A DNA stretch of 64,000 bases from Alphaproteobacteria bacterium (GTDB taxonomy: Bacteria; Pseudomonadota; Alphaproteobacteria; Micropepsales; Micropepsaceae), in assembly GCA_020852655.1 (NCBI GenBank), contig JADZAI010000086.1, positions 33,186-97,185 on the forward strand, given 5' to 3'. The translations under genes and the position numbers were made by a program. The notes under the pieces were generated by a model. The model was given only the letters and a program-made list of their open reading frames with translations. It searched no databases and was not told the DNA's origin. Shown in pieces: positions 48,135 through 49,928 of this stretch (positions are counted from its first letter, which is position 1; the number at the start of each line of letters is the position of its first letter).

Positions 48135-48408
48135 GCCGGCTTGCCCGGCTATGGCGATAAACGCGCGTGTAATAAGCGGCTCGGACCCGGGGGCGGTACC
48201 CGGCGCCTCCACCAAGCAGGCTCCACGGAGTCCGGTTGATGGGGGCGAAATAGCATCGACGGACGTGTAAAGACGTAGCTTTTGCTCGGTATGATATCCG
48301 CCGTTATCGGGTCATCGTACAGGTGCCAACGACAACGAAATGGCCCTCGCTGCCTAAATAGGCAAGCGCAGCTCGGTGGGGAGCTGGGCAACAGAATCCC
48401 CACCACTT
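48135..48408 (+). ncRNA. ssrA: circularly permuted (two-piece) tmRNA; approximate ends
   Basis: Acceptor piece ends ...CCGGGGGCGGTACCCGGCGCCTCCACCA (~48217); coding piece begins GGGGGCGAAATAGCATCGACGG (~48241), pairing GGGGGCG/CGCCTCC; tag ORF GCCAACGACAACGAAATGGCCCTCGCTGCCTAA at 48325-48357 = ANDNEMALAA*. Confidence 0.93.
48368..48407. repeat. 40-bp perfect direct repeat, left copy (candidate att site in ssrA 3' end)
   Basis: gcagctcggtggggagctgggcaacagaatccccaccact, identical to 49889-49928. Confidence 0.95.
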
Positions 48409-48448
48409 CCTTCCGGCGGCGAGCACCGCCCAAAGCCATCGACAGGCC

Positions 48449-49873
48449 GTGACAAAGCCTATTAGCAGAGCCTTGTTCGACCTACTTGCCATTGGGACAA
48501 GGCGAGCGATGACTCGCATTATGTCGACTGAGCGTTCTTGGTGGTCCAATCTCGACGGGACGTTGCTCGGCGCAGTCATTCTTGACCACACGGATAACGA
48601 TTTTGGGTGGGTGATTCTTGCCCGTGATACGGTTGGCCGATTTCGTTGCGTTGAGCTCAATATGAGCATGACGTCAGAACGAGTGGCGACGGCCGAGCTT
48701 CGGCTAGTGATCGCCGAGAAGGAGCGCGACCCGCTCTTTTTGGGGTATGAGTCTCAGGGTGACGAGCCAAACGACCTTCTTGACTTGCTCCAAGACAGAG
48801 GAATCCCCGACGGGAAGCTGCACCCGTATTTCAAAATTCTGCGAGACGAGCCGAGTAAGCATCCGGCACGAACGGTGCTTGCAGCCATTTCACCTTGGCT
48901 CCGGAGTTTCGATGCAAACCTAGTAAAGGAGTTTCAAGAAAGTCAGTTCGATCAACGCCTCTGGGAAGTCTATTTGTGGGCAACGTTGCGCGACCAGGGA
49001 TATGATGTCGAACATCATGAGGCTCCGGATTTGGTTGTATCGAGCCCGCTTGTGAAATTTTCAATCGAGGCAACAACAGTCGCGCCGTCCAAATCTGGCC
49101 CCTTGGCCACTCACCCTGAGCCAAGCACCCCGCACGAGTTTCTCGAATTCTTGGCCAACTATATGCCGATGAAATTTGGGTCACCATTGGTATCGAAGCT
49201 TAATAAAGTGGACGCGGCTGGAAGGCATTACTGGCAGAAACCCGGTCTCGAAGGTATTCCTTTCGTGATAGCCATCGCCGACTTCCACCAACCGGCGAAC
49301 ACGGAAGAACACAAACTTGGATCAATGACCTATAGTCAGAATGGCCTATACGCATACTTGTATGGCACAAGAGTGTCGGTCGAGAAGCAGGGTGATCAGA
49401 TCGTGCTCAAGAATACCCCAGTAACTGAGCACACCTACAATGGAAAGACTGTGCCATCTGGATTCTTTGATTTGCCAGACGCCGAAAATATTTCGGCAGT
49501 CGTATTCACCAACGCTGCCACTCTCTCAAAATTTGATCGTGTCGGCGTGATGGCCGGGTTTTGTCCTCCCGACCACAAATATATCCGTGTGGGTCATAGA
49601 TTTGATCCTGCACCAGAGGCCTTGGAAGGCATTCCGTTCAGCTCAGACGTTTCCGATCCGACATACGAAGAGTACTGGGGAGATGAGCTCCAAGTGTTTC
49701 ATAACCCAAAGGCCGTTCGACCGCTTCCCCCAGAAGCTTTCCCTGACGCCGCGCATTTCTTCTACGAAGACGGCCAACTGACAAGCATTGACCAAGGTGG
49801 CCGTGTGCTAGGTTCTTTCACGATGGCCTTGAAGATACTGTCCGATAGAGAGCGCCAGGCCGTGCCGAGCTGA
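48449..49873 (+). CDS. hypothetical protein, possible PD-(D/E)XK-like nuclease fold; accessory cargo gene
   Basis: 474 aa (GTG start; ATG starts at 48509/48521 possible). Segment FDQRLWEVYLWATLRDQGYDVEHHEAPDLVVSSPLVKFSIEATTV has the E..PD..(I)E-x pattern; low GC. Confidence 0.75.
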   Translation: MTKPISRALFDLLAIGTRRAMTRIMSTERSWWSNLDGTLLGAVILDHTDNDFGWVILARDTVGRFRCVELNMSMTSERVATAELRLVIAEKERDPLFLGYESQGDEPNDLLDLLQDRGIPDGKLHPYFKILRDEPSKHPARTVLAAISPWLRSFDANLVKEFQESQFDQRLWEVYLWATLRDQGYDVEHHEAPDLVVSSPLVKFSIEATTVAPSKSGPLATHPEPSTPHEFLEFLANYMPMKFGSPLVSKLNKVDAAGRHYWQKPGLEGIPFVIAIADFHQPANTEEHKLGSMTYSQNGLYAYLYGTRVSVEKQGDQIVLKNTPVTEHTYNGKTVPSGFFDLPDAENISAVVFTNAATLSKFDRVGVMAGFCPPDHKYIRVGHRFDPAPEALEGIPFSSDVSDPTYEEYWGDELQVFHNPKAVRPLPPEAFPDAAHFFYEDGQLTSIDQGGRVLGSFTMALKILSDRERQAVPS

Positions 49874-49888
49874 GAGATCATTAGGTCT

Positions 49889-49928
49889 GCAGCTCGGTGG
49901 GGAGCTGGGCAACAGAATCCCCACCACT
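49889..49928. repeat. 40-bp perfect direct repeat, right copy (displaced ssrA 3' end)
   Basis: Identical to 48368-48407. Confidence 0.95.

What the first reader, a model, noticed from the sequence alone, without database searches (positions are those of the whole stretch)
48368..49928. Minimal single-gene mobile element integrated at the 3' end of a permuted ssrA, without an integrase
Seen directly: a perfect 40-bp direct repeat (gcagctcggtggggagctgggcaacagaatccccaccact) occurs at 48368-48407, immediately after the tmRNA tag ORF, and again at 49889-49928. The repeat contains the hairpin GGTGGGGA...TCCCCACC that looks like the terminal structure of the tmRNA coding piece, so the left copy restores the gene. 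Between the repeats sits one 474-aa ORF in visibly lower-GC DNA: two 60-nt lines I counted gave 29/60 and 32/60 G+C, against 39/60 in a nearby host line. tmRNA genes are established integration targets for tyrosine integrases. A 1.5-kb insert with one cargo gene and no recombinase suggests a satellite element mobilized in trans, or a heavily decayed island.
Basis: partly seen in the sequence, partly recalled or inferred. Interest (0 to 1): 0.85.

Follow-up and report, generated by a model that had tools for sequence, protein, structure and literature searches.

The report
Single defence gene inserted beside ssrA
One foreign anti-phage defence gene sits alone, without any recombinase gene, between two identical copies of the end of the bacterium's tmRNA gene, as a mobile island would, which makes this an unusually small case of a known kind of DNA insertion.

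Summary
A perfect 40-bp repeat (48368-48407, 49889-49928) occurs only twice in the genome; the left copy is exactly the 3' end of the permuted ssrA (tmRNA) gene. Between the copies lies one gene in foreign DNA (52.8% G+C against 67.0 +/- 2.2%). The gene is a full-length relative of PD-T7-1, a one-gene anti-phage defence system also found in prophages and plasmids. Three congeners have one full ssrA tail each and lack the gene. The ancestral order thyA-ssrA-MFS-sspB-fumC is still recognisable around it. The insert is 96% coding and holds no recombinase; no tyrosine integrase was found at 81 related ssrA loci. The site is active in this family: 11 of 79 relatives carry a second tail 68-102 bp downstream, some with a stem unlike their own, and one (G062) has another one-gene, integrase-less insert ending in a displaced ssrA fragment. 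Best reading: a minimal non-autonomous island that entered by site-specific recombination at the non-tRNA-like end of permuted ssrA. Whether a recombinase acted in trans or was lost later is not settled; no helper or free attP was found. New variant of a known kind.

The parts
48095..48407 (+). permuted (two-piece) ssrA, tmRNA gene, tag ANDNEMALAA; the integration target
   Evidence: Rfam alpha_tmRNA 223 bits, full model, E 2.3e-63; ARAGORN
48368..48407 (+). left repeat (attL-like): the 3' tail hairpin of the tmRNA coding piece
   Evidence: identical to the right copy; ends where the Rfam model ends; covarying stem
48449..49873 (+). PD-T7-1 family anti-phage defence gene, 474 aa, GTG start, the only gene of the insert
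   Evidence: PADLOC PD-T7-1 E 5.3e-143 over residues 3-462; homologues share start and length; AlphaFold2 model pLDDT 89
49889..49928 (+). right repeat (attR-like): displaced copy of the ssrA tail
   Evidence: 40/40 identical; tail covariance model 38.8 bits
48408..49888 (+). foreign low-GC insert between the repeats
   Evidence: 52.8% G+C against 67.0 +/- 2.2%; gene absent from the congeners

Best explanation
This is a minimal non-autonomous genomic island. A 1.5-kb unit made of one ssrA-tail attachment site plus one PD-T7-1 defence gene was recombined into the tail at the 3' end of the host's permuted ssrA. The tail was duplicated, the tmRNA gene stayed whole, and the gene came to lie 41 bp behind it in the same direction, where read-through from ssrA could express it. 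Shown: the target, the perfect duplication, foreign composition, absence of the gene from congeners, identity of the cargo, no recombinase inside, repeated tail displacement at this site in relatives. Inferred: that a site-specific (probably tyrosine) recombinase did it, that it was supplied in trans, that the gene is expressed from ssrA, and that it protects against phage, probably as a nuclease.
For: Repeat equals the exact ssrA 3' end and exists only here. Foreign composition. Cargo is PD-T7-1, a family with members in prophages and plasmids. Congeners have one full tail and no such gene. The unit is 96% coding with 41- and 15-bp margins. In relatives the same site carries displaced tails, two with a different stem from the ssrA they follow, and G062 has another one-gene, integrase-less insert ending in a displaced ssrA fragment. 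No tyrosine integrase at 81 ssrA loci, while the control loci are recovered.
Against: Single genome. No helper integrase, attP or circular form found. No genome shows the exact empty site with the same right flank. The short 68-136-bp tail repeats could arise by local duplication and may be unrelated to integration.
Confidence: 0.5

Rival explanations
1. Remnant of a larger ssrA island: an ordinary integrase-bearing island entered at the tail, and later deletions removed everything but the defence gene, which selection kept.
For: ssrA islands normally carry an integrase (PMC4383910). In Dehalococcoides only some ssrA-flanked islands keep the integration module (PMC3146451). Other genomes of this family have 0.9-6 kb of varied genes between ssrA and the conserved MFS/sspB genes.
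Against: Deletions would have to stop 41 bp before the start codon and 15 bp after the stop while leaving both repeats perfect. No integrase remnant is visible, and the G062 insert is equally trimmed.
Confidence: 0.3
2. No site-specific recombinase: the tail was copied downstream by local duplication or template switching, and the gene was caught between the copies by illegitimate or homologous recombination.
For: Tandem tails 68-136 bp apart are common in the family; L064 has two successive 68-bp units that look like a tandem duplication.
Against: The downstream tails of L062 and L085 have other stem sequences than their own ssrA; G332 and G062 have a tail or longer ssrA fragment displaced intact; all extra tails at E<0.1 lie downstream on the same strand.
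Confidence: 0.13
3. Assembly or binning artefact joining a foreign contig at the 40-bp tail.
For: Assembly in 115 contigs with 3.7% estimated contamination. Order around ssrA differs from relatives: thyA is 19.6 kb upstream here and within 2.2 kb in the other 33 loci where it was found.
Against: A wrong join would need a separate molecule with both the gene and a free tail, and no third tail exists in the assembly. G062 shows the same kind of insert in another assembly.
Confidence: 0.07

Closest known systems
Genomic islands in tRNA/tmRNA genes (Islander class, PMC4383910)
   Same: Target RNA gene kept whole, displaced copy of its 3' end at the far boundary, foreign DNA between.
   Different: One gene only and no integrase; Islander requires an integrase gene.
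ssrA islands of Dehalococcoides (PMC3146451)
   Same: Flanked by ssrA and a repeat of its 3' end; site of repeated insertion; not every island has the integration module.
   Different: There the repeat is 20 bp at the T-loop of a standard ssrA and islands are multigene with a serine recombinase; here the 40-bp tail of a permuted ssrA and one gene.
Insertion at the non-tRNA-like 3' end of permuted ssrA in cyanobacteria (Williams 2003; from memory, paper not held)
   Same: Same sublocation: the 3' end created by gene permutation.
   Different: Alphaproteobacterium, one-gene insert without integrase.
PD-T7-1 defence system (PMC9519451)
   Same: Full-length match to the family model; single gene; family found in mobile elements.
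   Different: Only about 29% identical to the Escherichia phage homologue; setting is a lone gene at ssrA instead of a prophage or defence island.
Non-autonomous hitchers such as CALINs and MITEs (PMC11389934)
   Same: Recombination sites kept, recombinase missing, presumably used in trans.
   Different: No helper identified; the site is an ssrA tail, not attC or transposon ends.

Membership tests
tRNA/tmRNA-gene genomic island | displaced copy of the target gene's 3' end marks the far boundary | tested here: met
   40-bp repeat equals the ssrA 3' end
tRNA/tmRNA-gene genomic island | integrase gene inside the island (Islander criterion) | tested here: not met
   only the PD-T7-1 ORF fits between the repeats
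tRNA/tmRNA-gene genomic island | empty site in close relatives | tested here: inconclusive
   congeners have one full tail and no such gene, but their flanks differ from the window's right flank
PD-T7-1 defence system | full-length match to the family profile | tested here: met
   E 5.3e-143, residues 3-462 to profile 2-448 of 452
PD-T7-1 defence system | protects cells against phage | not testable with these tools
   needs plaque assays
PD-(D/E)XK nuclease | conserved acidic residues and lysine on the core strands | tested here: inconclusive
   E173, D194 and E207 invariant, but the K position is T (T209); weak fold hits to Hjc resolvases only, none with E<=0.001
Non-autonomous hitcher / CIME-like element | attachment sites without a recombinase | tested here: met
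Non-autonomous hitcher / CIME-like element | mobilised in trans by a helper | not testable with these tools
   no helper or attP found; needs an excision assay
Phage satellite (PICI, PICMI) | own integrase plus regulatory or packaging genes | tested here: not met
   one defence gene only
Integron gene cassette | attC site recombined by IntI | not tested
   layout is cassette-like (one ORF, one folded site), but both sites are ssrA tails; no search for IntI was made

The most novel reading that the evidence does not exclude
The structured tail of permuted ssrA is the docking site of a recurrent class of recombinase-less, cassette-like one-gene inserts (PD-T7-1 in this genome, a small predicted secreted protein in G062, and many empty or near-empty units about 70-140 bp long), moved by a recombinase encoded elsewhere that recognises the dyad-symmetric tail.
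Probability: 0.2. Interest if true: 0.8.

Novelty: new variant of a known kind. Interest (0 to 1): 0.5.

Why it matters
If real, it is close to the smallest possible genomic island: a single phage-defence gene delivered to a conserved locus with nothing else attached. It would show that defence genes can spread as bare cassettes that borrow a recombinase, and that island finders which demand an integrase miss such units. It also documents the non-tRNA-like end of permuted ssrA as an insertion hotspot in Alphaproteobacteria, with displaced tails as footprints that can be surveyed.

Tried and rejected
Free attP on phages or plasmids: exact 21-mer of the window tail in IMG/VR, none. A consensus tail hit one phage contig, L142, but that is a degenerate phage tmRNA (E 1.6e-6) and its 48-kb contig shows no tyrosine integrase. 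The other viral contigs with a well-paired tail that I checked (L149, L170, L186, L216) hold complete tmRNA genes. GenBank phages and PLSDB plasmids gave no isolated tail among the records listed. Helper in the host genome: tyrosine recombinase matches lie on five contigs, none next to ssrA and none with a tail copy. PD-T7-1 homologues as the same element elsewhere: 19 named loci, none with a tmRNA gene; no comparable flanking repeat in the six checked. One tail pattern was mis-spaced and its result is discarded. Fold search gave no confident relative. In 395 genomes sampled over the class, 260 have a tail and five have two at E<=0.01: G000, G106, G232, G319, G332. G232 seems to have a second tmRNA-like tag, G332 a tandem tail; G106 and G319 could not be examined because their coordinates were not listed. 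My first attempt to hand in this report was malformed.

Full report
Observation. The 40-bp sequence GCAGCTCGGTGGGGAGCTGGGCAACAGAATCCCCACCACT occurs at 48368-48407 and 49889-49928, identical, same strand, and nowhere else in the 3.95-Mb assembly even with three mismatches. Rfam's alphaproteobacterial tmRNA model covers 48095-48407 in full, ending on the last base of the left repeat; ARAGORN reads the tag ANDNEMALAA. The repeat is therefore the 3' end of the coding piece of a two-piece tmRNA, a non-tRNA-like end. Its hairpin is a conserved tmRNA element: in 42 tails 99.1% of cells pair, with changes on both sides at 7 of 9 pairs, and no shuffle reaches the covariation score.

The insert. The 1481 bp between the repeats have 52.8% G+C; 597 overlapping stretches of that length elsewhere in the window average 67.0% (sd 2.2, minimum 60.2), and GC3 is 0.57 against 0.88-0.90 in the neighbouring genes. 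One ORF, 48449-49873, fills 96% of it, 41 bp after the left repeat and 15 bp before the right one. No Pfam or NCBIfam model hits it, but PADLOC's PD-T7-1 model matches over its whole length at 5.3e-143. PD-T7-1 is one of the systems found by functional selection in E. coli, and its homologues are shown there in a defence island or prophage (PMC9519451). The protein search scored 1090 homologues, the closest 70% identical; start and length agree with them. Relatives below 60% identity are in Klebsiella, Escherichia and Morganella phages and in 92 plasmids. Invariant E173, D194 and E207 fit a PD-(D/E)XK-like core with T in place of K, and the model is confident (pLDDT 89), but the fold search was not decisive.

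Relatives. The genus includes G002, whose single contig has the length (4,443,179 bp) of the record named Alphaproteobacteria bacterium SO-S41. Three congeners with an assembled ssrA have a single full tail (G003 also a near copy 72 bp on) and lack the gene anywhere. Across the family the order thyA-ssrA-(MFS)-sspB-fumC recurs: thyA is within 2.2 kb upstream in 33 of the 34 loci where it was found, and MFS or sspB within 0.6 kb downstream in 26 of 44. In the window thyA is 19.6 kb upstream and the MFS gene 8.0 kb downstream, so both sides of ssrA have been enlarged; the downstream space also holds two sugar transporters and two glucose/sorbosone dehydrogenases of normal composition. The strict empty site (ssrA followed at once by the sequence at 49929) was not seen in any genome.

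The site is used repeatedly. I fetched ssrA with up to 20 kb downstream from 80 relatives; in 79 the tail could be placed. Eleven have a second tail 68-102 bp downstream on the same strand (L049, L054, L061, L062, L064, L068, L082, L085, L241, L243, L262), and two more a partial copy after a palindrome-like stretch (L063, L246). With the covariance model every extra hit at E<0.1 is downstream and on the same strand. In L062 and L085 the downstream tail has a different stem from the ssrA it follows, so it is not a simple duplicate. In G062 (L263) ssrA is followed by about 0.4 kb with one predicted secreted protein of about 127 aa, then a displaced ssrA fragment with tag region and tail, then the conserved MFS gene. 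In G332, of another family, ssrA carries a diverged tail and a consensus-like tail follows 62 bp later. No tyrosine integrase like those of the host genome is near any of these loci, while the same queries recover the control integrase loci. Gene-sized inserts are rare: two in 80 loci here, and five of 260 genomes across the class with two tails, two of them unexamined.

Mechanism. The footprint (target end duplicated, gene kept whole, foreign DNA between) is that of site-specific integration at an RNA gene (PMC4383910). The tail is a dyad-symmetric stem with a conserved loop, a plausible recombinase core; this is inference. The insert cannot have supplied the enzyme. I favour action in trans because the unit is trimmed to the gene, the repeats are perfect, and a second one-gene insert exists. 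Precise decay of a larger island is the close rival; in Dehalococcoides only some ssrA islands keep the integration module (PMC3146451). The gene's position just behind ssrA on the same strand, with no promoter-like site ahead of it, suggests expression by read-through; untested.

Limits. One genome, a fragmented assembly, no reads, no strain-level comparison, no helper. The integrase screen used a handful of tyrosine integrase queries and would miss serine recombinases. That insertion in the tail of permuted ssrA was noted earlier for cyanobacteria is from memory of Williams 2003, which is not held.

Noticed in passing
window 28746-48090: A 19-kb block with a radA-like gene, a purF-like gene and a PIN-domain gene lies between thyA and ssrA, which are neighbours in relatives; the SDR gene at its right end sits elsewhere in G002. 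Rearrangement or assembly join.
   Followed up: partly
window 49929-56327: Two tandem MFS_2 sugar transporters and two tandem glucose/sorbosone dehydrogenases fill the space between the insert and the conserved MFS gene; the block is absent from this place in congeners.
   Followed up: partly
L049, L054, L061, L062, L064, L068, L082, L085, L241, L243, L262; L270 8852-8952: Second ssrA tail 62-136 bp after ssrA, always downstream and same strand, sometimes with another stem; origin and role unexplained.
   Followed up: partly
L063, L246, L066 just after ssrA: Similar palindrome-like sequences of about 100 bp next to the tail, flanked by a partial tail repeat in L063 and L246; possibly a REP- or MITE-like element.
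   Followed up: no
L263 576-1116: One small predicted secreted protein between ssrA and a displaced ssrA 3' fragment in G062; no Pfam or PADLOC match.
   Followed up: partly
L069 13993-14919 (G002): A TIR-domain gene (PF13676, E 8.9e-12) lies in the ssrA-MFS interval of a congener, so another possible defence gene occurs at this spot.
   Followed up: partly
L142 501-644; L149, L170, L186, L216: Virus contigs carry permuted tmRNA genes; L142 has only a degenerate remnant beside phage structural genes.
   Followed up: partly
G000:C92:8212-9525 (L131): A second PD-T7-1 relative, 39% identical, in the same genome.
   Followed up: no
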